Positions 1,896 through 46,448 of a DNA stretch of 64,000 nucleotides are shown here, one piece after another. Below the pieces are notes generated by a model that saw only the letters and a program-made list of their open reading frames with translations, had not been told where the DNA came from and ran no database searches. The first letter of the stretch is position 1. Every line of letters begins with the position of its first letter. Source of the stretch: Bacteroidaceae bacterium (GTDB lineage: Bacteria > Bacteroidota > Bacteroidia > Bacteroidales > Bacteroidaceae); assembly GCA_024398435.1 (NCBI GenBank), contig JAKSJD010000011.1, forward strand, positions 1 through 64,000, read 5' to 3'. The position numbers and the translations under genes were made by a program.

Positions 1896-4883
1896 ATGAA
1901 GAAAGAACAACTCATACTGAAAGATACTTCGTTCGTCGACCTTATGGCGCGACGTATCTTCAATGTGCTTATCGTTGCAAATCCTTACGATGCCTTCATG
2001 CTGGAGGACGACGGACGCATCGATGAGAAGATTTTCGACGAATACTCAAAACTCGGCCTTCGATATCCGCCTCGCTTCTTTCAGGCAGCCAATGATGAGG
2101 AAGCTCGCCAACTGATGCAGCAGACCAAGTTCGAACTCGTGATCTGTATGCCTGGTAACGACAGCAACGACGTGTTCGACGTGGCTCGCAACGTGAAATC
2201 GTTCCTTCCCGACATTCCAATCGTGGTGCTTACTCCTTTCTCGCATGGTATCACAAAGCGAATGCAGAATGAGGACCTCAGCATCTTCGAATATGTGTTC
2301 TGCTGGCTTGGCAATACCGACCTCCTGCTCTCTATCATCAAGTTGATGGAGGACAAGATGAACCTCGAACACGATATCGAGGCGGCTGGTGTTCAGATGA
2401 TCATGTTGGTGGAGGACTCTATCCGCTTCTATTCGAGCATCCTGCCAAATCTCTATAAGTTCGTACTTCAGCAGAGTCTTGAATTCGCTACCGAAGCCCT
2501 CAACAGCCAGTTGGAGACACTCCGAATGAGAGGTCGTCCAAAGATTGTGCTTGCCCGCAACTATGAAGAGGCTTGGAATCTCTATCAGCGATTCAAGGAC
2601 AACACTCTGGGAGTGATCAGCGACTGCAAGTTCCCGATGACTGACGATAAGAAGGAACTCAGGGATAAGAGTATAAGTCTTGCCCAGAAGAAGGACGAGC
2701 AAGCTGGCTACAAACTCCTCTCTGCCATTCGTGCCGAAGACAAGTTCGTACCGCTTATCATGGAAAGTTCCGAACCCGAGAACGAACGCCTTGCCGACCT
2801 TTGTCATGCCAGTTTCATCGATAAGAACTCGAAGAAACTCGATGTCGACCTCCGCCGATTGGTGCGCAAGTACTTTGGTTTCGGCGACTTCATCTTCCGC
2901 AATCCTGAAACCATGGAAGAAGTGGCTCGCATCAAGAACCTCAAGGACCTTCAGGATCAGATTTTCTCGCTTCCACGCGAATCGCTTCTCTATCATATCA
3001 GCCGAAACAATGTCAGCCGTTGGCTTGGTTCGCGTGCCTTGTTCCCAATCTCCGAATTCCTGAAACACATCACTTGGAATTCGCTTCAGGATGTGGATAT
3101 GCACCGCCAGATTATCTACGATGCTATCGTCAGCTACCGAAGGATGAAGAACAGGGGTGTTGTGGCTACCTTCCGCAAAGATCGTTTCGACCGCTTCTCC
3201 AATTTTGCCCGAATAGGTGAAGGTTCGCTCGGAGGCAAGGGCAGAGGCTTGGCTTTCCTCGACAATATCATAAGCCGCCATGAAGACCTCAACCAATACG
3301 ATAATGCCGAGGTCACGATTCCGAAGACAGTCGTGCTGTGTACGGATATCTTCGATGAATTCATGGATTCGAACGAACTCTATCAGATTGCCCTCAGTGA
3401 CGCTACGGACGAAGAGATTCTCCAAAACTTCCTTCAAGCCAAACTGCCGGAAGAACTTACCGACGACCTTCTTGCATTCATTGATGTAGTGAAGACGCCG
3501 ATCGCCATCCGAAGCAGTAGCCTTCTCGAAGATGCCCACTACCAGCCGTTTGCAGGAGTTTACAGCACTTACATGATTCCGTATGTTGAGGACAAGACAT
3601 TGCAACTGAAACTTCTCGGCGATGCCATCAAGGGCGTGTATGCATCGGTGTTCTATCAGGATTCGAAAGCTTACATGACTGCCACAAGCAATGTGATCGA
3701 CCAAGAGAAGATGGCCGTAATCCTTCAGGAAGTGGTGGGAACTCAATACGAAAACTATTTCTATCCAACCATTTCGGGAGTTGCTCGCAGTATCAACTAC
3801 TACCCAATCGGCGACGAAAAGGCAGAGGAAGGTACCGTGAACCTTGCATTGGGACTTGGTAAGTATATCGTCGATGGCGGAATGAGTCTTCGCGTGTGTC
3901 CTTACCATCCACATAAGGTGTTGCAGACGAGCGAGATGGAGATTGCCCTTCGTGAGACACAAACCTATTTCCAGGCTCTCGACACGAAGAATATCAAGGA
4001 CGATTTCAAGGTGGATGATGGTTTCAACCTCTTGAAAGTGATGGTTCGCGATGCCGAGAAAGATGGTTCGCTCCAGTATATTTGCAGCACCTACGACCCA
4101 TACGACCAATGCATATACGATGGATTCTATGAAGGCAGAAACCGCAAGCTCATCACGTTTGCAGGTGTGCTTCAGCAAGGAGTGTTCCCTCTTCCGGAGA
4201 TTCTTTGCGACATCCTTCGCTACGGACAGGACGAGATGCGCCGACCTGTGGAGATTGAGTTTGCAGTGAATCTCCATCCCGACAAGACGGGTGAGTTCTA
4301 TCTGCTTCAGATTCGTCCGATGGTCGATAATAAGATGGTCATCGAGGAAGACCTCACACAGATAAAAGACGAGGAATGCCTTATCCGCAGCCACAATGCC
4401 ATAGGTCTCGGAATCAACAACGAGGTGCAGGATATCGTATATGTGAAGACGGAAGGATATTCGGCAAGCAACAACCCTCGCATTGCCGATGAGGTGGAAA
4501 GCATCAACCGCAAGTTCATCAATACCGACAAGTCATACGTCTTGATTGGCCCTGGACGATGGGGAAGCAACGACAGTTGGCTTGGCATTCCGGTGAAGTG
4601 GCCAAGCATAAGTTGTGCAAAAGTGATTGTTGAGGCGGGTCTCAAGGATTATAGGGTGGAACCAAGTCAGGGCACCCATTTCTTCCAGAACCTCACATCG
4701 TTTGGCGTTGGCTATTTTATTGTCAACGACTATATAGGTGATGGCGTTTACGATATCAATTTGCTGAACAGTATGCCGGCAGTGGAAGAAACTGAATTCG
4801 TGCGTCATGTACACCTCGACCACCCTCTCTCTATCAAGATTGATGGTATGAAGAAAGAGGGCGTCGTGATGATGGTTGAATAG
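1896..4883 (+). CDS. PEP/pyruvate-binding domain protein with receiver-like N-terminus
   Basis: A 995-residue protein. Residues ~20-150 and ~165-300 look like two degenerate response-regulator folds (NVLIVANPYDAF; MIMLVEDSIRF; ELVICMP). A PPDK/PEP-synthase ATP-grasp domain follows at ~440-815, with GEGSLGGKGRGLAFLDNII, IAIRSSSLLEDA and FAGVYSTY. The end is a distinct ~150-residue domain (LIGPGRWGS, SQGTHFFQNL). I see no phosphohistidine swivel domain and no C-terminal PEP-binding barrel, so it is not a complete PEP synthase or PPDK. The ATP-grasp part may phosphorylate or bind pyruvate/PEP; the real substrate is unknown. The start follows from the promoter at 1867. It converges with the FadL-like gene, with a 27-nt gap. 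Confidence 0.85.
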   Translation: MKKEQLILKDTSFVDLMARRIFNVLIVANPYDAFMLEDDGRIDEKIFDEYSKLGLRYPPRFFQAANDEEARQLMQQTKFELVICMPGNDSNDVFDVARNVKSFLPDIPIVVLTPFSHGITKRMQNEDLSIFEYVFCWLGNTDLLLSIIKLMEDKMNLEHDIEAAGVQMIMLVEDSIRFYSSILPNLYKFVLQQSLEFATEALNSQLETLRMRGRPKIVLARNYEEAWNLYQRFKDNTLGVISDCKFPMTDDKKELRDKSISLAQKKDEQAGYKLLSAIRAEDKFVPLIMESSEPENERLADLCHASFIDKNSKKLDVDLRRLVRKYFGFGDFIFRNPETMEEVARIKNLKDLQDQIFSLPRESLLYHISRNNVSRWLGSRALFPISEFLKHITWNSLQDVDMHRQIIYDAIVSYRRMKNRGVVATFRKDRFDRFSNFARIGEGSLGGKGRGLAFLDNIISRHEDLNQYDNAEVTIPKTVVLCTDIFDEFMDSNELYQIALSDATDEEILQNFLQAKLPEELTDDLLAFIDVVKTPIAIRSSSLLEDAHYQPFAGVYSTYMIPYVEDKTLQLKLLGDAIKGVYASVFYQDSKAYMTATSNVIDQEKMAVILQEVVGTQYENYFYPTISGVARSINYYPIGDEKAEEGTVNLALGLGKYIVDGGMSLRVCPYHPHKVLQTSEMEIALRETQTYFQALDTKNIKDDFKVDDGFNLLKVMVRDAEKDGSLQYICSTYDPYDQCIYDGFYEGRNRKLITFAGVLQQGVFPLPEILCDILRYGQDEMRRPVEIEFAVNLHPDKTGEFYLLQIRPMVDNKMVIEEDLTQIKDEECLIRSHNAIGLGINNEVQDIVYVKTEGYSASNNPRIADEVESINRKFINTDKSYVLIGPGRWGSNDSWLGIPVKWPSISCAKVIVEAGLKDYRVEPSQGTHFFQNLTSFGVGYFIVNDYIGDGVYDINLLNSMPAVEETEFVRHVHLDHPLSIKIDGMKKEGVVMMVE

Positions 4884-35563: not shown

Positions 35564-35672
35564 TCATTAGGCAACCCGTAGGGCTGCAGAGGCCGGATGA
35601 ATTGATATTTTGGCCTTCTTACTTAATTAGTCACTTTATCAAAAATTCCACGCTCGGAACTTATTTCGGGTG

Positions 35673-35680
35673 CAAAGTTA
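35673..35680 (-). promoter_or_regulatory. Promoter -7 box of rlpA
   Basis: The minus strand reads TAACTTTGCACCCG, exact consensus. Confidence 0.65.
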
Positions 35681-35889
35681 CGAAAAAATATTGAAACTTC
35701 CAAATTTTCTTTGTTTTTTCAGTCTTCTCGCCCCTGTATGCGAGTCCGAATAGCCGCGCTCCGAGGGGGCTCGTTGCACGCTTCGTGAGCCTATGTTACT
35801 ATGCTTCGCAGTGGAAAACATCAATAAAAATTACCCTATTTCTATAGAGAAATGACCTCCCGAACCGCGGTTCTCGACCCTATTCCTAT

Positions 35890-35977
35890 TGATGTTTTGC
35901 CTCATGTCTTATAATGTTTTGGTATAAACCTTATAATGTTTAGTGCCATTTCTTATAATGTTTTTTGTGTTTCGGGT
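35890..35977. repeat. 22-bp tandem array (TAATGTTTTG...CTTA)
   Basis: Four units at 35890, 35912, 35934 and 35956, each exactly 22 bp. T(A/G)ATGTTTTG and CTTA are constant; the middle (CCTCATGT, GTATAAAC, TGCCATTT) changes in each unit. Confidence 0.75.
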
Positions 35978-36018
35978 TGGGCGTTGCAAGTTTTGCTGTC
36001 GAAAAATAAAGATTTTCG

Positions 36019-36343
36019 CAAAAACCTGTCAGCCTGTCAGTTTTTGCCTCTAAGTCTTTGTAATATAACAACTTAAGTGGCTGACAGGTTCCACTAAACC
36101 TGTCAGTAACCTGTCAGCCATCCTTCAGCTTATTTCATTCCTTTTCCAACAGTTTTCTGCACCATTTCAACAAATCATTCAAATTCCTTTGCTAAAATAA
36201 ATGAATAATTCCTATAATTTATCAATATTACAGCTGACAGGTTACTGACAAGTTGCTGACAAGTTTTTATCAACCTGTCAGCCATCTAATTTGCAGATAC
36301 ATAGACAGTTATATCCTTAAACTGACAGGCTGACAGGTTTTTG
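36019..36343. repeat. CTGACAGG/CCTGTCAG array with 25-bp terminal inverted repeats
   Basis: The ends 36019-36043 and 36319-36343 are perfect 25-bp inverted repeats, each made of two abutting octamers (CCTGTCAGCCTGTCAG and its complement). Inside are further octamers at 36081, 36099, 36110, 36234 and 36274, plus two CTGACAAG variants at about 36246-36264. Several pair up as inverted repeats. It may be a binding-site array, a replication or transfer site remnant, or a MITE. It marks the left boundary of the accessory region. Confidence 0.8.
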
Positions 36344-36378
36344 TAAAATTCTTTTTTCACGAGAAAAAACATGTACTA

Positions 36379-36461
36379 CCCTAGAAAAAGTTGAATGGAT
36401 TTGTACTATAAGCCTGGGGCTGGTTGAATGAATTTTGCCTTGTCCCTAGACTTGGTTGAAT
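36379..36461. repeat. Three CCCTAG-N5-GTTGAAT direct repeats
   Basis: CCCTAGAAAAAGTTGAAT (36379), CCTGGGGCTGGTTGAAT (36413) and CCCTAGACTTGGTTGAAT (36444), spaced about 32 bp apart, between the CTGACAGG array and the NrtR promoter. Confidence 0.55.
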
Positions 36462-36566
36462 ACACGGTCACGAACTTATGTCGCTATTCAGTGGCTTATT
36501 GTTCGGTGAAATTTTCCATGCAGCTAAGGTAAAAATCAATAAACAAATACAAATAAACGCTGTAAT

Positions 36567-36581
36567 GTGTAAATTTTACAC
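36567..36581. promoter_or_regulatory. Operator 1 of the NrtR-type regulator
   Basis: GTGTAAA-T-TTTACAC, a perfect 7-bp palindrome, centred 53 bp (about five helical turns) upstream of operator 2. Confidence 0.6.
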
Positions 36582-36612
36582 AAAAATATTTGGTAGTTTC
36601 AACTTAAATTTA

Positions 36613-36620
36613 TAACTTTG
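36613..36620 (+). promoter_or_regulatory. Promoter -7 box of the Nudix/ADP-ribosylglycohydrolase operon
   Basis: TAACTTTG, exact consensus, 25 nt before the ATG at 36646. Its last base is the first base of operator 2. Confidence 0.65.
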
Positions 36621-36634
36621 TGTTAAAATTACAC
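36620..36634. promoter_or_regulatory. Operator 2, covering the transcription start
   Basis: GTGTTAAAATTACAC, an imperfect version of operator 1 with the same GTGT-N7-ACAC frame. A bound protein would cover the start site, consistent with repression; the binding protein is inferred to be the adjacent regulator. Confidence 0.55.
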
Positions 36635-36645
36635 AACTATCAGTT

Positions 36646-37338
36646 ATGGAAGAATTAAAATATCATTATAAGTATCCCCATCCGAGTGTGACAACAGACT
36701 GTGTCATCTTCGGATTTGACGGAGTAGAATTAAAGGTTTTACTGATTGAGAGAGGAGTAGAACCGTTCAAGGGACGGTGGGCATTTCCTGGTGGATTCAT
36801 AAAGATGGACGAGTCTGCAGAGGAAGGAGCCTTGCGCGAATTGCAGGAGGAAACAGGACTGACAGGAGCGTACATCAAGCAGTTCCATGCTTTCACAGAT
36901 CCTAATCGTGATCCTCGTGAGCGAGTAATCACCATAGCCTATTATGCACTTGTGCGCATACAGGATGTGAAAGGAGGCGATGATGCAGCCAAGGCACAAT
37001 GGTTTGATTTGGATGAAGTGCCTGCTCTTGCCTTCGACCATGACAGAATACTCCGTAATGCGATGCAAGAGCTTCGCAAGCAGATACATTTCGAGCCGAT
37101 AGGTTTTGAATTGTTGCCAGAGAAGTTCACTATGTCAGCCCTTCAGCATCTATATGAAGCCATCCTAGATGTGAAGTTCGACCGCAGGAACTTCAGCAAG
37201 AAGATGCTTCACTTTGGACTTCTTGACCTGTTGGAAGAGAAGGCAAAGGTAAGCCAGGCGAAGGAATCAGTTCTTTACACCTTCAATGCGGAAAGGTACA
37301 ACGAGATGAAGCAAAAGGGATTTAGATTAGAATTTTAA
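36646..37338 (+). CDS. NrtR-type transcriptional regulator with an intact Nudix domain
   Basis: A 230-residue protein. N-terminal Nudix domain (~8-140) with VTTDCVIFGFDGVELKVLLI and a complete Nudix box running from GGFIKMDE to RELQEETGL. C-terminal winged helix (~150-220, LPEKFTMSALQHLYEAIL and RNFSKKMLHFGLL), the NrtR layout. NrtR proteins sense ADP-ribose or phosphorylated ADP-ribose and repress NAD-related genes. Many have a decayed Nudix box; this one keeps every consensus residue, so hydrolysis may persist. Two palindromic operators flank its promoter. The next gene starts 11 nt downstream. Confidence 0.88.
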   Translation: MEELKYHYKYPHPSVTTDCVIFGFDGVELKVLLIERGVEPFKGRWAFPGGFIKMDESAEEGALRELQEETGLTGAYIKQFHAFTDPNRDPRERVITIAYYALVRIQDVKGGDDAAKAQWFDLDEVPALAFDHDRILRNAMQELRKQIHFEPIGFELLPEKFTMSALQHLYEAILDVKFDRRNFSKKMLHFGLLDLLEEKAKVSQAKESVLYTFNAERYNEMKQKGFRLEF

Positions 37339-37349
37339 TCAAAATAAAT

Positions 37350-38702
37350 ATGATAGGAAGTATTATAGGTGACATTGTAGGTAGTGTCTATGAGTTCACA
37401 TACCAGAATATAAAGACGAAGGACTTCCCTTTGTTTTCAGAACAAGGAAACTACACAGATGACAGCATCCTCACAGTAGCAACAGCCGACTGGTTGTTGC
37501 ATGGAGGAAATATAGCAGAGTATTACAGCAGATACGGAGCAAAATACCCTAGGCCGATGGGAGGATATGGAGGCAACTTCCAATTGTGGATTGCACGATC
37601 CAGTGTCCGAGGAGACTATAGCCCATACAACAGCTGCGGCAACGGAAGTGCCATGCGAGTTGGACCAGTAGGATGGGCATTTGACACTAAGGATGAGACG
37701 CTAGCCGCTGCGAAGGTCTCTGCCGAGTGTACCCACAACCATCCAGAAGGCATCAAGGGCGCACAGGCTATAGCACTCTGTATCTTCATGGCAAGAAAAG
37801 GTTTTGACAAGGATACAATACGTAAGGAGGTTGAAGAGCAGTTCGGTTACGATTTGAACTTCACTTGCGACGGTATCCGCGACAGCTATACATGGGGCGG
37901 TACTTGCCAAGACAGCGTTCCGCAAGCCATTGTAGCCTTTCTAGACGGAAATGATTTTGAAGATTGCATACGCAACGCCATCAGCATAGGCGGTGACAGC
38001 GATACCATCGGCTGTATCACTGGAAGCATAGCTGAAGCGTTCTATGGTGTACCAAATGTTATTAGAAAGAAGGCGTTAGAATATCTCCTAGAAGAACTGA
38101 AAAAAGTACTTGTTGAATTTGAAAATATATACAAGCCACTAATTATGAAAGAAAATAATGAAATCAGCCCATTCGAGTTTCAAAAGAATATAATTGAAGA
38201 TTATGAAAATGTCAGAGATGCACAGCTGTATTTCTCAACACATGGAAGAACCGGTACTCTGGAAGGTAGGACCACACCGAAAAATATCAGAGAGTTGAAA
38301 GAAAACGAGGTATTTGTCTTCGGAAGCAATGCCAAAGGATATCATGGTGGTGGAGCCGCTGCTTTTGCATTGAATCACTTTGGAGCAGTATGGGGACAAG
38401 GTGACGGAATTCAAGGGCAAAGCTATGCCATCAGTACCATGGAAGGACTGATTCGCACAGCACGCAATATTAACAGATTTATTAAATATGCGCATGATCA
38501 TCCGGAAAAGAGGTTTTATGTAACTGCCATTGGATGCGGCATTGCAGGATATACGCCATTGCAGATTGCGCCTTTGTTTGAAAGAGCGTTAGTATTACCT
38601 AATGTGTTTTTGCCAGAAATATTCTGGGAATACTATTGGATAACAGGCGAACATCAACCAGAATATTTCACACCCGACGATAGTTGGAAGATGTGGAACT
38701 AG
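37350..38702 (+). CDS. ADP-ribosylglycohydrolase fused to a macro-like (A1S_2505-type) domain
   Basis: A 450-residue two-domain protein. Residues 1-265 are an ADP-ribosylglycohydrolase of the DraG type: GSIIGDIVGSVYEF, the metal-binding YTDDSILTVATADWLL, SCGNGSAMRVGPVGW, HNHPEGIKGAQA and SIGGDSDTIGCITG; both metal sites look intact. After a charged linker, residues ~315-450 (ENEVFVFGSNAKGYHGGGAA, GQGDGIQGQSYAIST, FYVTAIGCGIAGYTP) resemble the phage A1S_2505-like family, whose glycine loops recall macro domains. It should remove ADP-ribose from a target; the second domain may bind the product. Coupled to the NrtR-type gene. The domain naming of the C-terminus is from memory of the family pattern. 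Confidence 0.82.
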   Translation: MIGSIIGDIVGSVYEFTYQNIKTKDFPLFSEQGNYTDDSILTVATADWLLHGGNIAEYYSRYGAKYPRPMGGYGGNFQLWIARSSVRGDYSPYNSCGNGSAMRVGPVGWAFDTKDETLAAAKVSAECTHNHPEGIKGAQAIALCIFMARKGFDKDTIRKEVEEQFGYDLNFTCDGIRDSYTWGGTCQDSVPQAIVAFLDGNDFEDCIRNAISIGGDSDTIGCITGSIAEAFYGVPNVIRKKALEYLLEELKKVLVEFENIYKPLIMKENNEISPFEFQKNIIEDYENVRDAQLYFSTHGRTGTLEGRTTPKNIRELKENEVFVFGSNAKGYHGGGAAAFALNHFGAVWGQGDGIQGQSYAISTMEGLIRTARNINRFIKYAHDHPEKRFYVTAIGCGIAGYTPLQIAPLFERALVLPNVFLPEIFWEYYWITGEHQPEYFTPDDSWKMWN

Positions 38703-39101
38703 CTTTAAAAGAACCATTTTTTGATAAAGACTAGGCAGGTAATATCATTCCCATTCTTCCTGATTATAGCGAAGGTCGGTGTAAATGTCCGTAACAATCT
38801 GGAAGTATGCACAGACGCATCTAGAGAAAAATAGCGATCTATTATCAGCTGTAGCTGTAATCTCTAAACAACGCAGTTGTAAAAGCTACGTTATTTATAT
38901 AAAAATTAGGTGATGCTAAAAAAAAGTTATTGGTTAACGTTATCGTTATCGTTTTTATTTGTATATTTGCAAGTGAAAATTACAAAACGAGTTAGGTTCC
39001 TGTAACTGATCTGGTGAAGTATGATGTATGTGAAGTAAAGGACAGAGCCAAATTCATAGTAGGAATACTTGACTAGACTCGATATTATATAATGTGTAAT
39101 T
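38703..39101. other. Intergenic region before the DUF1848 operon
   Basis: No gene and no clear terminator. From 38931 there is a GTTAAC/GTTATC hexamer run directly before the -7 box at 38962. About 130 nt of leader follow. Confidence 0.5.
38962..38969 (+). promoter_or_regulatory. Promoter -7 box of the DUF1848-helicase-TerB operon
   Basis: TATATTTGCAAG, exact TAnnTTTG, preceded by GTTATCGTTATCGTTTTT hexamers, 132 nt upstream of the first ATG. Confidence 0.55.
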
Positions 39102-40166
39102 ATGGCATCTTGGAAACATAAAAATATTGAGATTGATGGAAGGCTTGTTGAAGCGCAAGCCCCAATCATCATATCTGCAAGTCGTAGTACGGATATTCCG
39201 GCTTTCTATGCTGACTGGTTCTTTTACCGCCTTGAAAAAGGTTATTCCGCATGGACTAACCCTTTCAACGGGGTTAAGTCTTATGTTTCATACGATGAAA
39301 CTAGGTTTGTCGTTTTCTGGTCAAAGAACCCTCGCCCTCTGTTGGAACATCTCCATAAGCTTGAAGAACGTAATATCAAGTGCTACATTCAGTACACACT
39401 TAACGATTACGAAAAAGAACATCTGGAGAAAGTTCCATCTTTGGAGAAACGCATCGAGACATTCAAGTTATTGGTTGAACGCCTCGGAAAAGGTTCCGTA
39501 GTTTGGAGATTCGATCCTATGATCCTCACTGATGACATTTCGGTGGATACACTTCTTTCCAAAGTTCAGAACATCGGCGACCAACTCAAAGGCTACACTG
39601 AAAAACTCGTTTTCAGTTATGCCGACATCGCTCTTTACAAGAAAGTAAAGTCTAATCTTGAAAAGAGTGGTATTCCTTACCATGAATGGACAGAAGAACT
39701 AATGGAAATTTTCGCTCAAAGACTTTCATCCATGAATAAGGAGAGAGAATGGAATTATACTCTTGCCACTTGCGGTGAGAAAATTGACATCAACAAATAT
39801 GGAATTGCACACAATCGCTGTATTGATGGCGACCTCATTACGCGTCTTGCATGGGACGACCCCGTGCTGATGGATTTCATGAAGGTCAAAATTGAGGATG
39901 CCCCAGTTCCTTCACTATTTGGTGACGCCGAGCTTCCACAGGGTGCAATTCATTTACCTCATAATAAATACTTCATCAGCGCACACAAGAAAGATGCAGG
40001 ACAGCGTGAGCTTTGCTGCTGTATGGCAGCCAAAGACATTGGAGAGTATAATACTTGCCCGCATTTTTGCGAATATTGCTATGCAAATACTAGCAAGCAG
40101 TCTGTAGCAAGAAACTACAATTGTCATCAACAGAACCCAAATTCAGAAACAATTACAGGAAAATAA
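39102..40166 (+). CDS. DUF1848 protein with C-terminal cysteine cluster
   Basis: A 354-residue DUF1848 protein. It begins with the family start PIIISASRSTDIPAFYADWF and continues with TNPFNG, FVVFWSKNPRPLLEHL, VVWRFDPMILTDDIS and LATCGEKIDINKYGI, consistent with a barrel-type enzyme fold. Near the C-terminus it has CCCMAAKDIGEYNTCPHFCEYCYAN; the CPHFCEYC part looks like an iron-sulfur site related to radical-SAM motifs but placed at the end. Function unknown. Only 2 nt separate its stop from the helicase start, so the two are co-translated. ADP-ribose and DNA-modification roles are possible by context only. Confidence 0.8.
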   Translation: MASWKHKNIEIDGRLVEAQAPIIISASRSTDIPAFYADWFFYRLEKGYSAWTNPFNGVKSYVSYDETRFVVFWSKNPRPLLEHLHKLEERNIKCYIQYTLNDYEKEHLEKVPSLEKRIETFKLLVERLGKGSVVWRFDPMILTDDISVDTLLSKVQNIGDQLKGYTEKLVFSYADIALYKKVKSNLEKSGIPYHEWTEELMEIFAQRLSSMNKEREWNYTLATCGEKIDINKYGIAHNRCIDGDLITRLAWDDPVLMDFMKVKIEDAPVPSLFGDAELPQGAIHLPHNKYFISAHKKDAGQRELCCCMAAKDIGEYNTCPHFCEYCYANTSKQSVARNYNCHQQNPNSETITGK

Positions 40167-40168
40167 TT

Positions 40169-42817
40169 ATGTCATATGTAGAAGATATAAGGCTCTTAAA
40201 TAGTATTGACGATATAATAGATTATTGTCATAATGCATTGCCAGTAGAATATAAAAGAACCCCTTGGACGCATCCCGAGTTGAATCGTGGCATAGGCCTG
40301 TTAACAAGCGATGTCGCGCTCAATTGCTATATGTCTGCATATGGAGATATGCATGTTGCCAAGTGCCGAGCCGCAATGATGAATTTTCCATTTAATGATA
40401 TCCAAGGAAGTATAGAAATAGTCGACTGGGGATGTGGCCAAGGCATAGGCTCAGCTACTGTAATTGAAGTGCTAAAGCAACGTAATTTGCTTCAATGGCT
40501 TCGTAAGGTAACTCTTATTGAGCCTTCTCGAAGTGCCATCGCGAGAGCAAACGATAATGTCCGTGCACTAACTCACGGCATAGTTGAAATAGACCTGAAG
40601 AATCTTTTTCTTCCATCAAACTGTGTAGCAGAAGAGAAAACACTTACCTCTATTGGATATAAATGTAATAATGTCATCCATGTGTTTTCAAATATTTTGG
40701 ATGTAACTGCTATAGACTTGGGGAAAGTCGCAAGAATGGTGGCGTCTGCACACGGAAAACACTTTGTGCTTTGTATTGGCCCTAAAAATGGTGCTGCGTA
40801 CAGAATTAGTAAATTCTGCTCTGTTTTTGGAGAACAAATGTATTTCAGCCAAATTGATAGTGTTCGTTACGCTCGAACTAAGCGAACTGCACACTCGTAT
40901 TCATGCATGACAAGATGTTTTGAGTACAATGGTGCAACTATTGACCTTAACAGATTAGCTTTGGTGGGTGAGAGTCATGAGGCAATATACCATGAATATG
41001 ATTTACGCTTACAGATTCAAAACCATGTGCTATCACCTCAAAAAGCAAGAATTGCATGGAGATTGGAGAATATTTTGTCTGTGGATGATATTATGTATAT
41101 TGATGCAGTTGTAAATGAAGCAGCTGTTGACTTTATTATAGTCAGACCTAACAAGGGAATTCTTTTACTTAATGTATTCGAGGTAAACCTTAATGAGTGT
41201 AAAATATCGGAAGACAAAAAGAAAATAGACGTAAACGGGCAATTATATCAATCTCCTATTGATCTTATAAACCTTTGTCAATCGAGTATCAAGGATGGTG
41301 TGGAGGAACTTTTGATGAGTACGATTGAGAATACTAAGAACTATAGTCTTATTAAAAAGGTGGTTGTATTTTCGGAAAATACTATTGATGAAATAAAGGA
41401 TTTCTTTGGCCAAAAAGGTAATATAAATAATTTCGCTTTTGTTTACGGCAAGGAGTTTATTGAGAATAGAGACATCTCACAGAATTTATATACTACTATA
41501 GGCTTCCTACGCTCCAACAATGTTTTTGACGATGTGGTTATAAGAAAATTGGCTAAGATAATATCTCCTTCTTGGCATTCTTATCAGGAAGGACGTATTG
41601 ACATGCAACCAATAGGCGCACAGAAGGGACTTTCGGAAAGCAGTGTTACACACCAGAAAATAAGTGGAGTTGCTGGTTCTGGAAAGTCTCAAGTACTTGT
41701 TTTCAGAGCTGTGAATGCTATGAAACGCACTGGAGGTGATGTTTTAGTGTTGACTTATAACATTACGTTAGCAAATTACCTAAAAATGAGACTTTCGGAA
41801 ATTCGAGAAGATTTCTCTTGGGAAAAAATAGACGTCTATCCATATCATCAGTTTTTTAGAATACGGGCCGCAGAATGTCAGTTACATGTTGATTTTGGAT
41901 CATATCAAGACGAATTTTTCTTTGTTAAATCAAGAAACCATAAGAAATATTCTGCAATCTTCGTTGATGAAGTTCAAGACTATACTACGGAATGGCTTCG
42001 CATCGTCATGCAGAATTTTTTATTGGAGCCTAATGGTGAGCTAGTTGTATTCGGAGACCCAAAGCAAAATGTATTTCAACGACCTTTAGGTATAAATGGC
42101 GACATCCGCTTGGGTGTTATTGGAGGACAGTGGAATCGGCAATTAACAACCAGCCGAAGATTTACTAATCCTAGGCTGGCAAATTTAGCAGCAGCATTTC
42201 AAACACAATTCTTTGCAAATCAACCCTGCGATAATATAGTTGTGGAGAATGCTATATCAAACATGTTCAATTTCCAGATACTTTCATATATTGACATAAG
42301 GCAAAATTATTCTTTGGATGTTGTAGTATCTAAAATAATTGACATCATATCTAATGATCAACACGAAGCAAGAGACTTTGTTGTGCTAGCTTCATCAACA
42401 AAATTACTTCGTAGTATTGACACGCTTTATCGCCAAAAAACAAATGAACAAACAGAAAATACATTTATACCAGCCGAAGCTCTTGAACGGTTAAAACAAA
42501 TACATCAAGTAACTGATGAGAGAATGGCTAATTGGAAATTTAATAGGGATTTTGAGGCCCTTGAACGAACAAGAAAGCAATTGTTTACCACTGACAAACG
42601 ATGCTTGAAAATCTCTACCATACAAAGTTTCAAGGGATGGGAAGCTCCTTCCGTTATAGTTATTCTAGAAAGTGACTTTGCTATACATAATACGACATTC
42701 CGTCCAATGTCGCCACAAACAATATATACGGCGATAACTCGTGCTAGAGAAAACATATATATAATTAATATAGGTAATGATACCTATCACAACTTTTTCT
42801 ACAATCAGACATTATGA
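40169..42817 (+). CDS. Methyltransferase / NERD-like / SF1 helicase fusion
   Basis: An 882-residue protein with three parts. Residues ~80-260: class I SAM methyltransferase, motif I EIVDWGCGQGIGSA and VTLIEPSRSAIARAN. Residues ~295-420: a NERD-like nuclease fold (NEAAVDFIIVRPNKGILLLNV) in which the usual E-x-K is not clear (EVN), so it may be inactive. Residues ~490-882: UvrD/Rep-type helicase with Walker A GVAGSGKS (~500), FVDEVQD (~600), GDPKQNVFQRP, TSRRFTNPRL, ISTIQSFKGWEAPSV and YTAITRARENIYI (~855). ATG at 40169 is chosen over a TTG at 40121. It overlaps the TerB-like gene by 4 nt. The base composition is visibly A/T-richer than neighbouring core genes, suggesting transfer. A defence role is inferred. 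Confidence 0.82.
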   Translation: MSYVEDIRLLNSIDDIIDYCHNALPVEYKRTPWTHPELNRGIGLLTSDVALNCYMSAYGDMHVAKCRAAMMNFPFNDIQGSIEIVDWGCGQGIGSATVIEVLKQRNLLQWLRKVTLIEPSRSAIARANDNVRALTHGIVEIDLKNLFLPSNCVAEEKTLTSIGYKCNNVIHVFSNILDVTAIDLGKVARMVASAHGKHFVLCIGPKNGAAYRISKFCSVFGEQMYFSQIDSVRYARTKRTAHSYSCMTRCFEYNGATIDLNRLALVGESHEAIYHEYDLRLQIQNHVLSPQKARIAWRLENILSVDDIMYIDAVVNEAAVDFIIVRPNKGILLLNVFEVNLNECKISEDKKKIDVNGQLYQSPIDLINLCQSSIKDGVEELLMSTIENTKNYSLIKKVVVFSENTIDEIKDFFGQKGNINNFAFVYGKEFIENRDISQNLYTTIGFLRSNNVFDDVVIRKLAKIISPSWHSYQEGRIDMQPIGAQKGLSESSVTHQKISGVAGSGKSQVLVFRAVNAMKRTGGDVLVLTYNITLANYLKMRLSEIREDFSWEKIDVYPYHQFFRIRAAECQLHVDFGSYQDEFFFVKSRNHKKYSAIFVDEVQDYTTEWLRIVMQNFLLEPNGELVVFGDPKQNVFQRPLGINGDIRLGVIGGQWNRQLTTSRRFTNPRLANLAAAFQTQFFANQPCDNIVVENAISNMFNFQILSYIDIRQNYSLDVVVSKIIDIISNDQHEARDFVVLASSTKLLRSIDTLYRQKTNEQTENTFIPAEALERLKQIHQVTDERMANWKFNRDFEALERTRKQLFTTDKRCLKISTIQSFKGWEAPSVIVILESDFAIHNTTFRPMSPQTIYTAITRARENIYIINIGNDTYHNFFYNQTL

Positions 42818-43146
42818 ATAGTTTTACAACAATAGAAACATATGCTATCATAAAAGTTCTTTCTCATATTATGAAAGCAGATGGTATTATCCATCCTGAA
42901 GAAGAGAAATATATGAATCAGATATATAGTGATTTTTCCATAACAATCAATGATTTGGAAGATATTTCAAACCTCGATGATGTTCAAACGAAACTTATTA
43001 TCAGTGTAATGTCTGATGAAAAAAAGGATAGAGCTCTTGGCTTATTCGTTGGAATGGCTGAAGCGGATGGCTATTTTCACCCCATGGAGAAGGAAATCTT
43101 AAATGACATCTTTATTGATGATTATGCAAATGGTGATTTGAAATAA
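42814..43146 (+). CDS. TerB-like protein
   Basis: A 110-residue, acidic, all-helical protein with the two-fold TerB pattern: HIMKADGIIHPEEEKYMNQI in the first half and GMAEADGYFHPMEKEILNDI in the second. TerB domains bind metal and occur in tellurite-resistance and several anti-phage gene sets. The ATG overlaps the helicase stop (ATGA), tying its expression to the fusion protein; a regulatory or adaptor subunit is the likeliest role, by inference. Confidence 0.8.
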   Translation: MNSFTTIETYAIIKVLSHIMKADGIIHPEEEKYMNQIYSDFSITINDLEDISNLDDVQTKLIISVMSDEKKDRALGLFVGMAEADGYFHPMEKEILNDIFIDDYANGDLK

Positions 43147-43182
43147 TTAGTCTTTATTGTTTGTTCATGATAAAAAGTACCA

Positions 43183-43875
43183 TTGTTTAATAGAGAAAAA
43201 GAAACGAAGATTAAAGATTTCAACAAATTAATTGCAGAAGTTAATAAAAATATTATGATACCAGGTCCTCCCCAAATTCTTACCTGCCCATTCTGTGGCG
43301 GCGAGAAACAAATTATGTCTCTTATTTCCGGCAACACATTTGGTGCCGAGTTGTGGTCGGACAATAAACAGATTGCCCCAATGCTACCTAACATCTCATA
43401 TATTCAGAAGTGTCCGCATTGTGGAAAGTATTATATCCTTAGTAGGCAAGAACCGAATTTTGATAGGGATGGTGATTCCTTTGAAACTGGAGAACTGAAT
43501 TTTGAAGAAACCAAAGAAGCATATGAGCAACTGTCTAATGAAGGATTCCGAACTCATGGTGAAGAAATCGAGGTGAGATTAATGCTGTTCCACGCCTTGA
43601 ACGATTGCTATGGCCGAACTTTGCTGGGCTTTGATGGCTGTGAAGATGACTGGAACCTGTTTGTTGAGCAAGGGAAATGGCTTATTGAGCATGCTATTGC
43701 CGATAATGTGTTGAAAGCTGAGTTTTATCGCGAAATCGGTGAGTTTGACAAAGCCAGTGAATTACTCGTTGGGGTAGTGCCTGATGATGATTTCATTAGA
43801 GAATTTGCTGAGAAGATAAAGGAAAGAATCAAGCTTAAAGATAGTAAAGTTTTTATTATCAGCGGAGAAAAGTAA
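43183..43875 (+). CDS. Hypothetical zinc-ribbon protein
   Basis: A 206- to 230-residue protein. It has two zinc knuckles, CPFCGG and CPHCGKYY, about 40 residues apart, forming one zinc ribbon, then a helical C-terminal half (EVRLMLFHALNDCYGR, KAEFYREIGEFDKASELLVG) resembling TPR-like helices. Start: TTG at 43183 is the longest; ATG at 43255, just before the zinc ribbon and after an A-rich stretch, is at least as good. It lies 36 nt after the TerB-like gene and 31 nt before the next. Function unknown. Confidence 0.7.
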   Translation: MFNREKETKIKDFNKLIAEVNKNIMIPGPPQILTCPFCGGEKQIMSLISGNTFGAELWSDNKQIAPMLPNISYIQKCPHCGKYYILSRQEPNFDRDGDSFETGELNFEETKEAYEQLSNEGFRTHGEEIEVRLMLFHALNDCYGRTLLGFDGCEDDWNLFVEQGKWLIEHAIADNVLKAEFYREIGEFDKASELLVGVVPDDDFIREFAEKIKERIKLKDSKVFIISGEK

Positions 43876-43906
43876 TCATTTTAAAGTCATCTAAAATAGC
43901 AAAAGA

Positions 43907-45157
43907 ATGATTTCAGTAAAAGAAATACTTTCAGATTTAAACAAATTATCAGACGAGGAATTTGCTAATTTGTCTATATCAACACGCAGGTTATTCGAGT
44001 ATAAACTTCGTGCGCTTGAATATAGTGAGTTGGAAGAATTATTAGTTAATGTACCTTCAACCAGTCAAAAACGGAGTTATATCAATGGCATAGCTATTGA
44101 GCAAGCCCAACGCCTTGCATTTAAAGAAAAGAAAGAAGCCGAGCGTTTGGTTAAAAACGAGACAATAGAGGAATTGCTGGAACTTTACAACAACAAGAAA
44201 TCTGGAAGAGTCCAAGAAGCCAGGAAGAAAATTCAACATCGCTATCCATACCTTTCATACAAAGAACAACTCGTTATCATGAGAACTTTTTTGAAAGGCG
44301 GAAAAACAGAAAGGCTTTGGGGATACAATATTCTCCGCAACTTATGGAGTGAAGATTTTAAAGATGATGTGCTTGAACTTTGGCTGAAATACAAGGAAGA
44401 GCGATGCGGATGGCTATTGATAAAATATTTTTCTACTGACGAAATCCGTCCTTTTGTAGATGACCTCAGCACCAGAAATAGCTATTACAATCTTTGTAAG
44501 AAATTGGTCAAAGAAGAATGGTTTTCGATTGACATTAATTTGTTGAAACAATTACCTTTGACACATGAAGAGTTTATATGGATTGTGTCTCAGTCAAAGA
44601 ACGGGATATCCGAAGAAGAAGCCATGTCCTATGTATACAGAAACATTGCTTACACTTTGTGTGGTTTGAATGTGTATACTTATCCCGACGGCCAATTTGC
44701 ATATGGAAGGAACATTTATTATTATCCTCCAAAGATAGATGACTTGTTCTATATGCGTAAGATTATAGGTATGGACAATATGCTGACCAGTATATGCAGA
44801 ATGGGATATGATGTCGCTGTTCGAAAATTTTTGGAACTGGACCAGTCCATACATGATTCGATAATTGATATGTACTATGAAGATGAGGTTGGAGGTGATC
44901 AACGATATGAGGCTATTGTTCGTGAATGGCTCGCCGAATACCGAGCTAAATTCCCTAAAGAATATAGATACATATTGGATAATAACTCAGGCACTAAGCC
45001 AGTCAAAAGGTCTTATATTAGGAACAGGCCGATTACTGAAGAAGAGTATAACCAAATGGCATTTGACAATGAATCATTCAATGCCCTTGTGGAGCAATTT
45101 AAGTTAGAGGTTCCAAAGGATGAAGAAACTAATTATGCAGATGATCCTCCGTTTTAA
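43907..45157 (+). CDS. Hypothetical large helical protein
   Basis: A 416-residue soluble protein, rich in Glu, Lys and Tyr, without a signal peptide or membrane segment. The first ~130 residues are strongly helical and charged (NETIEELLELYNNKKSGRVQ). The middle holds repeated Leu/Tyr helices (LRNLWSEDFKDDVLELWLKY, SYVYRNIAYTLCGLNVY). No enzyme motif is seen. It sits in the same rightward run as the helicase fusion (31 nt from the zinc-ribbon gene, 14 nt before the lipoprotein). Confidence 0.65.
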   Translation: MISVKEILSDLNKLSDEEFANLSISTRRLFEYKLRALEYSELEELLVNVPSTSQKRSYINGIAIEQAQRLAFKEKKEAERLVKNETIEELLELYNNKKSGRVQEARKKIQHRYPYLSYKEQLVIMRTFLKGGKTERLWGYNILRNLWSEDFKDDVLELWLKYKEERCGWLLIKYFSTDEIRPFVDDLSTRNSYYNLCKKLVKEEWFSIDINLLKQLPLTHEEFIWIVSQSKNGISEEEAMSYVYRNIAYTLCGLNVYTYPDGQFAYGRNIYYYPPKIDDLFYMRKIIGMDNMLTSICRMGYDVAVRKFLELDQSIHDSIIDMYYEDEVGGDQRYEAIVREWLAEYRAKFPKEYRYILDNNSGTKPVKRSYIRNRPITEEEYNQMAFDNESFNALVEQFKLEVPKDEETNYADDPPF

Positions 45158-45171
45158 TCATTACAAATTAA

Positions 45172-45876
45172 ATGAATATGGCAAATACGGTAAAAAACTG
45201 TAAGGAGCAAAAGGCATGTTTGAAAGACATGCCAATGGTAGATATTGCTACAGAAATCATAGGATACGCAATATCGATACTGATAATTATGTTGATTTCA
45301 GGTTGCAACAATCAAAACTCCATTCAAGAACCTAATGAAGAGGCAGACACCTGTATTGAGATTTATGTTAATTGTATGAAGTGCCAACAGGAGCTGGATA
45401 CAGTCATTGGTAAGTTCGATGGTGTGAATATCGATACTCTGTTCCTTCAGCAACAGGAAATCATCGATATTCATGATGTCTCTTATCTGCTTACTTCCAC
45501 ATCGGGAAAGCTTCCGGCAATTCAAATGTATGGTTATCATGATGTTAAACCATGTGTTTATGAAGAAGGAGATCTTGACGGAAACGGAACTGATGAAGTT
45601 GCCTATATGAATTCCATGGACACTGGTGGATGGAGAATGTATTACATACTCTCATTCAAGGATGGCAAGTGGATGAATATGTTCCCTGACTTAAAAGACA
45701 TTTTGTACACAGGCACTTCTTTCAGGGGATTAGACTATGAAATCGCCCAACCATACGAGAAGGGCAAGGTCAAATTAACATACTATTTCGAAGGGTATGA
45801 CGAAAAAATAGGTGACAGGATAGAAGAAGTTAGAGATACCATAGTCTCACCATCATTTGGGGATTTATTGCAATAA
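45172..45876 (+). CDS. Lipoprotein with an FG-GAP-like repeat
   Basis: A 234-residue protein. The hydrophobic segment IIGYAISILIIMLISGC ends in a lipobox at about Cys45; the unusually long N-terminus suggests that a later Met (MPMVDIATEIIGY) may be the real start. The mature part has an FG-GAP/calcium-loop-like motif, EGDLDGNGTDEVAYMNSMDT, and a beta-rich end. Last gene of the accessory run; a weak hairpin follows at 45895-45912. Function unknown. It may be an unrelated passenger in the run. Confidence 0.65.
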   Translation: MNMANTVKNCKEQKACLKDMPMVDIATEIIGYAISILIIMLISGCNNQNSIQEPNEEADTCIEIYVNCMKCQQELDTVIGKFDGVNIDTLFLQQQEIIDIHDVSYLLTSTSGKLPAIQMYGYHDVKPCVYEEGDLDGNGTDEVAYMNSMDTGGWRMYYILSFKDGKWMNMFPDLKDILYTGTSFRGLDYEIAQPYEKGKVKLTYYFEGYDEKIGDRIEEVRDTIVSPSFGDLLQ

Positions 45877-45894
45877 AACATTTGTCGTTAGGAA

Positions 45895-45912
45895 CACTGA
45901 TTTTAGTCAGTG
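45895..45912 (+). terminator. Weak hairpin after the accessory run
   Basis: CACTGA and TCAGTG with a 6-nt loop, 19 nt past the lipoprotein stop. There is no T-run, so termination is uncertain. Confidence 0.35.
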
Positions 45913-45938
45913 CCATTAATGTATCACAACAAAAAAAA

Positions 45939-45978
45939 GAGTGCTGACCGATTCGTGAATGAATGTGATCAGCACCTC
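45939..45978 (-). terminator. Terminator of the tRNA-fMet gene
   Basis: GAGTGCTGA and TCAGCACCTC arms. Leftward it runs into eight T (AAAAAAAA on the plus strand), 12 nt past the 3' end of the tRNA. Confidence 0.75.
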
Positions 45979-45989
45979 GTGGGTTGTTG

Positions 45990-46063
45990 TTGCGGAGATT
46001 GGATTCGAACCAATGACCTCCAGGTTATGAGCCTGGCGAGCTACCAGCTGCTGCCACTCCGCG
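45990..46063 (-). tRNA. Initiator tRNA-fMet (anticodon CAU)
   Basis: A 74-nt cloverleaf. Acceptor CGCGGAG pairs with CTCCGC except for a C1-A72 mismatch, the hallmark of initiator tRNA. Anticodon arm CCAGG-CTCATAA-CCTGG; T-arm ATTGG-TTCGAAT-CCAAT; discriminator A; CCA not encoded. The D-stem can form only with one bulged C (GCAGC opposite GCTC), and the third G-C pair of the anticodon stem is A-U, so it departs slightly from the textbook initiator. It has its own promoter and terminator, with its 3' end facing the accessory region. Confidence 0.9.
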
Positions 46064-46099
46064 ATGTTATGTTGTTGCCTTCATTTCTGAAAGCGAGTG

Positions 46100-46107
46100 C
46101 AAAGGTA
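46100..46107 (-). promoter_or_regulatory. Promoter -7 box of the tRNA-fMet gene
   Basis: The minus strand reads TACCTTTGCACTCG, exact consensus, 37 nt before the tRNA 5' end. Confidence 0.65.
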
Positions 46108-46204
46108 CGAACTTTTTTCGACATTGCCAAACTTTTTGGTGGAAAAAATGCCTTTTTCAGCATGTTGGCTGATTTCGCCTTCGTTTTTCTTTGGTAATGA
46201 TAAC

Positions 46205-46303
46205 ATAATGACACAACAATTTTTCTCTCTCCACTAATCGACTTGTCGCTTGGCTCGTCCAAGAAATATTATCCATAAGTTAAAAACAAATCCATCCGGA
46301 AGG
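46205..46303. mobile_element. Internally deleted inverted-repeat element
   Basis: Outer ATAATGACAC, then TTTTTCTCTCTCC and the hairpin segment of the right arm, then directly AATATTATCC...ACAAATCCATCCGGA, which is the centre of the 57.2-kb copy read on the other strand. About 150 bp between end and centre are missing. Confidence 0.65.
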
Positions 46304-46448
46304 TCATTGCCTAGATTCTCGCTTTTGCAAACTCTAAAACCTTTGGTTTTGTGGCTCGAAATCGTCAAAATCTTTCCCCTATAATAAAATAATAATGTGT
46401 TTGTTGTATATTTTTGTAAATTTTCATTGGAGTTTGGAAAAGTTGTTG

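What the first reader, a model, noticed from the sequence alone, without database searches (positions are those of the whole stretch)
39102..43146. Operon of DUF1848, a methyltransferase/NERD-like/SF1 helicase fusion, and a TerB-like protein
Seen: three genes locked together (2-nt gap, then a 4-nt ATGA overlap). The central protein joins a SAM methyltransferase motif (VDWGCGQGIG), a NERD-like fold and a full set of UvrD-type helicase motifs in one 882-residue chain. Known: NERD domains, SF1 helicases and TerB domains each recur in anti-phage gene sets. Inference: a self-contained defence system in which a DNA or RNA modification activity and a translocase are tied together, with DUF1848 adding an Fe-S enzyme. 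I do not know this domain order as a described system.
Basis: partly seen in the sequence, partly recalled or inferred. Interest (0 to 1): 0.85.

Follow-up and report, generated by a model that had tools for sequence, protein, structure and literature searches.

The report
Radical-SAM and methyltransferase defence-like module
In gut bacteria, two enzymes that probably alter chemical groups on other molecules travel together on mobile DNA with interchangeable partner parts (motors, binding repeats, sugar-tagging enzymes), which looks like an undescribed, mix-and-match anti-virus system, although no one has yet tested whether it defends cells.

Summary
The operon is real: DUF1848 (39102-40166), an 882-aa protein (40169-42817) and a TerB-like protein (42814-43146). 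It is one architecture of a wider modular family. The 882-aa protein's methyltransferase-like N-domain (residues 1-258) lies near DUF1848 in 34 of 45 loci; six more are cut by contig ends and five lack DUF1848 nearby. The attached module varies: NERD-like/UvrD plus TerB (this window), DpdF-like helicase plus a small protein, UvrD helicase plus ADP-ribosyltransferase, Sel1/LRR repeats, FGE domain, or none. One ORF encodes DUF1848, N-domain and LRRs together.

In two loci an AlkB-type oxygenase accompanies the N-domain without DUF1848 nearby; in a third both occur.

Low GC, mobilisation and restriction neighbours and phage-contig copies suggest a conflict system. I propose that the methyltransferase modifies a nucleobase that DUF1848 or AlkB reverses or remodels. 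Defence, substrate and chemistry are untested.

The parts
39102..40166 (+). DUF1848 protein, 354 aa: probable circularly permuted, SPL-like radical-SAM enzyme; CX3CX2C at residues 319/323/326 (40056-40079) near the C-terminus; four more invariant cysteines 224, 240, 305, 307 (a second Fe-S site is inferred)
   Evidence: (invariant in 20 of 20 diverse DUF1848 rows)
40169..42817 (+). 882-aa fusion: methyltransferase-like N-domain, NERD-like domain, SF1 helicase
40169..40942 (+). class-I methyltransferase-like N-domain (residues 1-258), the recurring partner of DUF1848
41024..41608 (+). NERD-like domain (about residues 286-480; boundaries approximate): D321 kept, catalytic E-x-K replaced (LNVF, residues 334-337): predicted pseudo-nuclease
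41636..42814 (+). UvrD-type SF1 helicase (about residues 490-882), motifs intact by eye (GVAGSGKS with Walker-A lysine 506, VDEVQD, GDPKQN, STIQSFKGWE, YTAITRAR)
42814..43146 (+). TerB-like protein, 110 aa, found only with the NERD/UvrD architecture among the loci scanned
35600..46400 (.). island (boundaries approximate): 34-41% GC per kilobase from 38 to 46 kb against 43-48% in most flanking kilobases (36-37 kb 38%, 37-38 kb 46%); its eight genes were not found upstream of TamB in 9 congeneric stretches of 2.4-16.5 kb; membership of 43183-45876 in the system is not supported

Best explanation
SHOWN: DUF1848 and a class-I methyltransferase-like domain form a recurring pair, carried with interchangeable modules; this window holds the NERD-like/UvrD + TerB version. 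DUF1848 is related at profile level to spore photoproduct lyase (SPL), a direct-reversal DNA repair enzyme, if its C-terminal cysteine segment is moved to the front. In two loci an AlkB-type dioxygenase (a family that includes direct-reversal alkylation repair; recalled) sits beside the N-domain and no DUF1848 is found nearby. INFERRED: this is a mobile conflict (anti-phage) system. The variable module (helicase, LRR/Sel1 repeats, FGE domain) recognises or tracks along the invader; the NERD-like domain is a nucleic-acid-binding remnant. When engaged, the methyltransferase domain places a methyl group on a nucleobase of the target. The radical-SAM DUF1848 (or AlkB) reverses or remodels that mark, most simply protecting the host: a lesion-and-reversal, writer/eraser logic. 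I put the modular conserved pair at about 0.9, a conflict/defence role at about 0.7, and the specific writer/eraser chemistry at about 0.3; the confidence below is for the whole statement.
For: Pairing: DUF1848 (250 aa or more) lies within four genes of the N-domain in 34 of 45 loci, 35 of 46 N-domain ORFs (near-copies included). In 393 Bacteroidales genomes, 18 of 19 genomes with a strong N-domain hit also hold a PF08902 match (one, G513, only an 18-position fragment below the cut-off at a contig end), against 80 of 393 overall (hypergeometric 1e-12; relatedness not corrected). Spacing of directly abutting same-strand pairs is -4 to +33 nt, apart from L178 (mechanical ORFs overlap by 94 nt). 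L071 encodes DUF1848 + N-domain + LRR in one 891-aa ORF. Modularity. N-domains cluster by module type (6 changes, shuffled mean 24.4), while DUF1848 tracks it only weakly (mean identity 66.4% same versus 60.7% different type; N-domain 52.1% versus 27.1%). SPL kinship: hhalign 78.1% native, 94.9-95.7% permuted at cuts 160-316; MiaB-family control 6-8%; column-shuffled maximum 0.4%. AlkB-type PF13532: L192 6.2e-33, L074 2.4e-32, L024 9.1e-31. Conflict context; PADLOC models hit by both main proteins.
Against: No phage challenge and no substrate. The N-domain shows no DPPY-type motif, so it need not be a nucleic-acid methyltransferase. A single chain holding DUF1848 and N-domain (L071) suits successive steps on one substrate better than weapon and antidote. 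Five loci lack DUF1848 although the contig continues, and only two of these have an AlkB-type gene beside the N-domain; one genome (G693) has two N-domain genes and no PF08902 hit. Twelve DUF1848 genes without a nearby N-domain fall inside the system's own part of the tree (L039 ends 601 nt downstream, so its partner may be cut). Most DUF1848 genes lack the N-domain, so the enzyme may have a housekeeping role. DUF1848 similarity may follow host lineage (L069, L072, L079 are one family) rather than exchange.
Confidence: 0.3

Rival explanations
1. Two-step hypermodification: the methyltransferase and then DUF1848 (or AlkB) act in sequence on one base to make a self-mark or a toxic modified base; there is no reversal. 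The helicases and repeats are the restriction or sensing arm, as in other modification-linked defence systems.
For: DUF1848 and N-domain fused in one chain; tight gene coupling; DpdF-like helicases in one architecture, DpdF being a component of a deazaguanine DNA-modification system (recalled).
Against: The NERD-like domain lacks its catalytic residues and no other nuclease recurs in the loci read; no DPPY-type motif.
Confidence: 0.25
2. Constant effector, variable sensors: DUF1848 + methyltransferase modify a host or phage protein, tRNA or free nucleotide (viperin-like logic) after a variable sensor fires, causing growth arrest.
For: LRR, Sel1 and FGE modules look like binding scaffolds; no DPPY-type motif in the N-domain, compatible with a non-DNA substrate; DUF1848 tracks the variable module only weakly.
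Against: AlkB-type neighbours and SPL kinship point to nucleobases; three architectures carry helicases.
Confidence: 0.25
3. Non-defence: an accessory DNA/RNA repair or stress operon for alkylation or photo-damage.
For: SPL- and AlkB-like enzymes are repair families; DUF1848 commonly occurs without the N-domain.
Against: Patchy presence (19 of 393 genomes strongly), island location, restriction and mobilisation neighbours, copies on phage-like contigs, exchangeable LRR/ART/helicase modules.
Confidence: 0.12
4. One reading: a self-contained restriction-modification-like trio with a working NERD nuclease.
For: The trio keeps TerB in 14 of the 15 NERD-type loci with enough sequence to tell.
Against: E-x-K lost in nine of nine fusions aligned; the same core occurs with unrelated modules.
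Confidence: 0.05

Closest known systems
Spore photoproduct lyase (Pfam PF20903) / radical-SAM direct-reversal repair
   Same: Profile similarity over 147-169 columns, including CX3CX2C and the E..P...RI...DP region, after permutation
   Different: The cysteine motif is at the C-terminus; no direct PF20903 match listed at E<=1; extra invariant cysteines; partnered with a methyltransferase domain
PADLOC C3a187 'NERD+UvrD' and plasmid NERD/UvrD helicases
   Same: Residues 286-865 match at 1.4e-32; about residues 425-880 are 28-29% identical to the best plasmid NERD/UvrD proteins
   Different: Fused to a methyltransferase domain, E-x-K lost, partnered by DUF1848 and TerB
PADLOC RTasDUF1848 (DUF1848 associated with defence reverse transcriptases)
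   Same: DUF1848 of the window matches at 1e-35
   Different: No reverse transcriptase domain among the ten proteins scanned around the operon
DpdF helicase (Dpd deazaguanine DNA-modification defence) and PsyrT
   Same: In the three type-2 proteins scanned, the module matches DpdF (1.1e-71 to 5.3e-80) and PsyrT (8e-55 to 2.2e-49) models
   Different: Fused to the N-domain, usually beside DUF1848, followed by a small predicted coiled-coil protein; other Dpd genes were not looked for
2CompART/2CompARG ADP-ribosylation proteins (PF22546, PF22545)
   Same: L018 and L077 match both, L081 the ART alone; four more by similarity to L077
   Different: Here between a UvrD-like helicase and an extended N-domain protein, with DUF1848 at the head where the contig reaches it
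DISARM / ARMADA (helicase plus DNA methyltransferase systems; PMC12458937, passages read)
   Same: Helicases and a methyltransferase in one operon
   Different: ARMADA's methyltransferase is PglX-like; 'radical SAM' does not occur in that paper's main text

Membership tests
Radical-SAM enzymes | CX3CX2C cluster motif | tested here: met
   Cys 319, 323, 326 invariant in 20 of 20 diverse DUF1848 rows
Radical-SAM enzymes | Motif at the start of the barrel, Pfam PF04055 above its cut-off | tested here: not met
   Motif near the C-terminus; PF04055 E 0.096 native and 0.0073 permuted (window), 0.063 and 0.021 (L178), none either way for L034 and L171; all below the cut-off
Spore photoproduct lyase family | Profile similarity across the catalytic barrel | tested here: inconclusive
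   95.7% only after permutation, 78.1% native; MiaB control 6-8%; single-sequence tests indecisive; no PF20903 match; no structure available
Class-I SAM methyltransferases | Motif I G-x-G and acidic residue after strand 2 | tested here: met
   D86, G90, Q91, E118 invariant in 12 of 12 rows of A1; G88 and C89 in at least 90%. Pfam methyltransferase matches are below their cut-offs
DNA amino-methyltransferases | D/N/S-P-P-Y motif | tested here: not met
   By eye on the N-domain alignment: the motif-IV position reads IHxFSNILD
NERD / PD-(D/E)xK nucleases | Catalytic D...E-x-K | tested here: not met
   D kept; E and K replaced (N-V-F, N-L-F, N-I-F, N-V-C, N-I-C) in nine of nine fusions aligned; the unfused L014 has Q-V-C; the Klebsiella plasmid NERD keeps E-V-K
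UvrD-type SF1 helicases | Helicase motifs, Pfam above cut-off | tested here: met
   PF00580 37.3 bits against a cut-off of 23; motifs seen by eye
TerB | PF05099 above cut-off | tested here: met
   36.8 bits against a cut-off of 24.4
Defence-associated reverse transcriptase (DRT) | Reverse transcriptase gene in the locus | tested here: not met
   None among the ten proteins scanned from 33.7 to 45.9 kb
Anti-phage defence system | Protection against phage | not testable with these tools
   Only genomic context:

The most novel reading that the evidence does not exclude
A new class of immune system that fights with reversible base chemistry: a methyltransferase inflicts a base lesion on the invader, steered by exchangeable helicase or repeat modules, while a direct-reversal enzyme (a circularly permuted photoproduct-lyase relative, or AlkB) heals the host. 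DUF1848 genes without a partner would then be orphan antidotes.
Probability: 0.22. Interest if true: 0.93.

Novelty: new variant of a known kind. Interest (0 to 1): 0.74.

Why it matters
It gives DUF1848, a family of unknown function, a functional setting and a link to direct-reversal repair enzymes. If the conflict role is right, it adds a modular defence family whose recurring part is a radical-SAM/methyltransferase pair and whose variable part ranges from helicases to leucine-rich repeats. That makes 'what base chemistry does DUF1848 do?' a concrete question, testable by nucleoside mass spectrometry.

Tried and rejected
Active NERD nuclease: rejected on the alignment. A fixed three-gene system: rejected, because the module varies. 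DUF1848 as a marker of defence: rejected as a general rule, since most DUF1848 genes seen lack the N-domain (60 stretches around DUF1848 places were fetched, not every place listed; in one, L135, my ORF calling found no DUF1848). Relatives in IMG/VR by single-protein patterns: none for the 882-aa protein or DUF1848; the N-domain profile found four. Solved structures: no credible hit for DUF1848, the N-domain or the whole fusion. N-domain in a Clostridia-like class: 1 of 236 genomes, the one it was seeded from, so L035 may be a mis-binned contig. SPL family in 61 related genomes: 0. Simple empty site in congeners: not found; the flanks are rearranged. Kinship of the N-domain with the other methyltransferases beside DUF1848 (L132, L124): only short motif matches, 83% over 51 columns and 14% over 45. 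Single-sequence hhalign against SPL was weak (4-49%) and not better in probability than other radical-SAM proteins (1.5-49%), differing in aligned length. Promoter and terminator scan: only slightly above shuffles. Paper searches: 'DUF1848' in 0 papers of the held library; nothing describing this pair was seen in the listings, nor in the passages read of PMC10853773, PMC9503650 and PMC12458937. Most subscription papers and bioRxiv preprints outside PMC are not held, so this is weak evidence of novelty.
Full report
OBSERVATION. The three genes are as described: DUF1848 at 39102-40166, a 2-nt gap, the 882-aa protein at 40169-42817, and a 4-nt overlap into a 110-aa TerB-like gene at 42814-43146. 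Pfam and PADLOC confirm DUF1848, UvrD-type helicase, NERD+UvrD (residues 286-865) and TerB. The N-terminal 258 residues carry class-I methyltransferase motifs; Y54, D86, G90, Q91, L116, E118, P119, S120, R126, H171, S174 and D178 are invariant in 12 of 12 rows of alignment A1.

THE UNIT IS LARGER AND MODULAR. A search of 101 related genomes matched 10, with the N-domain on proteins of very different length. Reading the neighbourhoods showed that what recurs is DUF1848 beside this N-domain. I counted 46 N-domain ORFs (E<1e-30 with my profile) in 45 loci, the window included; near-copies are counted (L027/L028/L029; L175/L176). In 34 of 45 a DUF1848 of at least 250 aa lies within four genes. Six of the remaining 11 are cut by a contig end: L018, L026, L070, L075, L076, L193. 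Of these, L018, L026 and L076 show a DUF1848 fragment at the break, and for L070 the matching contig end L153 leads into DUF1848. Five lack it although the contig continues: L082, L083 (both genome G693), L177, L192, L024.

MODULES. Type 1, NERD-like/UvrD: 17 loci (window, L013, L023, L026-L036, L072, L175, L176). The TerB-like gene follows in 14; L034 and L035 are cut inside the big gene; L023 has 352 nt left, in which no TerB was found. So 14 of 15 that can be judged. No TerB hit lay in any other type. Type 2, DpdF/PsyrT-like helicase: 7 loci (L015, L016, L017, L074, L083, L177, L192). Three were scanned with PADLOC, the other four assigned by similarity to L015; L083 had no Pfam match at 0.001. 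A small protein follows in 7 of 7; including L015 itself five match the L015 one at E<=0.01, and the other two look alike only by eye. Type 3: UvrD-like helicase (6 of 7; L193 is cut), ART/ARG-type protein (7 of 7) and an N-domain protein with an N-terminal extension (L018, L075-L078, L081, L193). Type 4, Sel1 and/or BspA-type LRR repeats, by Pfam in 10 of 10: L019, L020, L069, L070, L071, L073, L079, L080, L082, L084; in L019 the N-domain gene faces DUF1848, and in L084 it lies upstream. Others: FGE-sulfatase domain (L194) and N-domain alone (L021, L024, L178). L071 encodes DUF1848, N-domain and LRRs as one 891-aa chain.

WHAT TRAVELS WITH WHAT. In 31 loci with both, N-domain identity averages 52.1% within a type (116 pairs) and 27.1% between types (349 pairs); DUF1848 averages 66.4% and 60.7% (types assigned by me). 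In a 42-row tree N-domains sort by type (6 changes, shuffled mean 24.4). L069 (Sel1) and L013 (NERD) share DUF1848 at 84% with N-domains at 28%; L034 has an N-domain 83% like the window's but DUF1848 only 64%. So the N-domain travels with its module, and DUF1848 follows the module only weakly. Exchange is one reading; host lineage is another, since L069, L072 and L079 come from one family.

HOW COMMON. In 393 Bacteroidales genomes, 25 matched the N-domain profile at E<=0.001, 19 of them strongly (E<1e-30); six were weak (2e-4 to 8e-7) and were not counted. PF08902 matched in 80 of the same number (77 over the cut-off), including 18 of the 19; G513's match is an 18-position fragment below the cut-off. 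Hypergeometric p is 1e-12 (relatedness not corrected). Across the phylum sample 12 of 395 matched, 4 strongly, the window's own genome included; in a Clostridia-like class 1 of 236, the seed genome. In a tree of 88 DUF1848 proteins, all 31 with an N-domain nearby fall in one 43-row group (SH-aLRT 94) that also holds 12 without; four linked to a different helicase pair lie in a neighbouring group.

DUF1848 IS PROBABLY A PERMUTED SPL-LIKE RADICAL-SAM ENZYME. It has CX3CX2C near its C-terminus plus four further invariant cysteines. Against 13 SPL-family proteins (alignment A6; 13 of the 15 fetched, leaving out a partial and a fused one), hhalign gives 78.1% over 73 columns as it stands. Moving the C-terminal segment to the front raises this to 94.9-95.7% over 147-169 columns for cuts between residues 160 and 316; a cut at 60 gives 79.2%, and a cut at 110, which breaks the matching region, 61.1%. 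A MiaB-family control of 24 proteins, mostly from close relatives, gives 6-8%, and 20 column shuffles reach at most 0.4%. Pfam Radical_SAM improves from 0.096 to 0.0073 for the window protein and from 0.063 to 0.021 for L178, but L034 and L171 match neither way. Single-sequence comparisons are inconclusive. SPL reverses a thymine dimer directly (PMC3742179, start of abstract seen in the listing).

ALKB. PF13532 proteins lie beside the N-domain in L192 and in L024 (a Moraxella plasmid), with no DUF1848 in the 18.0- and 16.5-kb stretches read, and beside DUF1848 in L074. With the SPL kinship this is the main reason to favour nucleobase chemistry. It rests on three loci. Two DUF1848 loci without the N-domain also carry a gene weakly matching class-I methyltransferases, below the Pfam cut-offs (L124, L132).

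THE NERD-LIKE DOMAIN IS PROBABLY DEAD. Where the Klebsiella plasmid protein has D...E-V-K, nine of nine type-1 proteins aligned (nine of 17 loci) keep D but read N-V-F (window, L031, L033), N-L-F (L035), N-I-F (L036), N-V-C (L013, L072) or N-I-C (L023, L175). The unfused relative L014 has Q-V-C, so the loss is not confined to the fusion. Helicase motifs are intact by eye.

CONTEXT. The operon's stretch is AT-rich, and none of its eight genes was found upstream of TamB in nine congeneric stretches of 2.4-16.5 kb. From the type-1 loci a script listed 141 non-redundant flanking proteins; I scanned 123 of them. PADLOC at 1e-10: three match type I restriction enzymes, two type I methyltransferases, two GajA and two PtuA models (possibly the same two proteins); only the 25 commonest of 262 families are shown. 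Pfam at 1e-6: HSDR_N in three, GmrSD in two, NikA-like in three, relaxase in two, integrase in two. No control set of random loci was scanned. On IMG/VR contigs, two hold the whole type-1 trio (near-copies), one a type-2 gene, and one DUF1848 + N-domain near genes that look like phage lysis genes by eye.

MECHANISM. Shown: pairing, modularity, motif status, profile kinship, island context. Inferred: conflict role, base methylation, reversal or remodelling by DUF1848. The writer/eraser model explains why DUF1848 is well conserved, loosely coupled to the module and often alone, and why AlkB can stand near the N-domain instead. It fits less well with the L071 fusion, with loci that have neither enzyme, and with the absence of a DPPY-type motif. 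Sequential modification and a viperin-like constant effector remain close rivals.

NOVELTY. Parts are known to PADLOC as candidates (RTasDUF1848, C3a187). No held paper names DUF1848, and the other searches listed under Tried and rejected found none describing this pair. I rate it a new variant of a known kind, with a bolder reading at probability 0.22. Checking changed three facts (nine, not ten, NERD rows; TerB in 14 of 15, not 14 of 14; DUF1848 tracks the module weakly rather than not at all); none required a change of odds.

Noticed in passing
window 36646-38702: NrtR-like NUDIX regulator followed by an ADP-ribosylglycohydrolase fused to an A1S_2505-type domain: an NAD/ADP-ribose pair just upstream of the operon. 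L069 carries a protein with a similar N-terminus three genes before its DUF1848 (by eye).
   Followed up: no
window 43907-45157: The 416-aa unknown protein has distant relatives beside the system elsewhere (L016, directly upstream of DUF1848; L036, downstream).
   Followed up: partly
window 45989-46063 (-): tRNA-Met at the right edge of the low-GC stretch, a possible integration point.
   Followed up: no
L038, L124, L132, L162: DUF1848 with a different UvrD-like helicase and a large unknown partner (663-755 aa), no N-domain; L124 and L132 also have a gene weakly matching class-I methyltransferases: a possible sister system.
   Followed up: partly
L020, L073: The Sel1/LRR architecture is followed by a second, ordinary radical-SAM protein (202-209 aa) and an 85-88-aa protein.
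   Followed up: partly
L193 2347-3258: A TIR-domain protein with pentapeptide repeats directly follows a type-3 operon.
   Followed up: no
L024 (Moraxella osloensis plasmid) 3754-4680: An annotated viperin-family gene lies about 3 kb before a stand-alone N-domain and an AlkB-type gene.
   Followed up: no
L013, L070/L153: A gene that looks (recalled, not scanned) like a DUF1016-type nuclease lies between or beside N-domain and DUF1848; the N-domain of L013 is split over two frames.
   Followed up: no
L071 6291-6908: A second, shorter N-domain copy (205 aa) near the fused gene, with altered motif letters (DYGSGQ, IIQPT): perhaps decayed.
   Followed up: no
L023 11222-11573: The fecal 'Bacteriophage sp.' record with a type-1 fusion has, after it, another open frame instead of TerB, and a MutS-like gene upstream, so it may be a bacterial contig.
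   Followed up: partly
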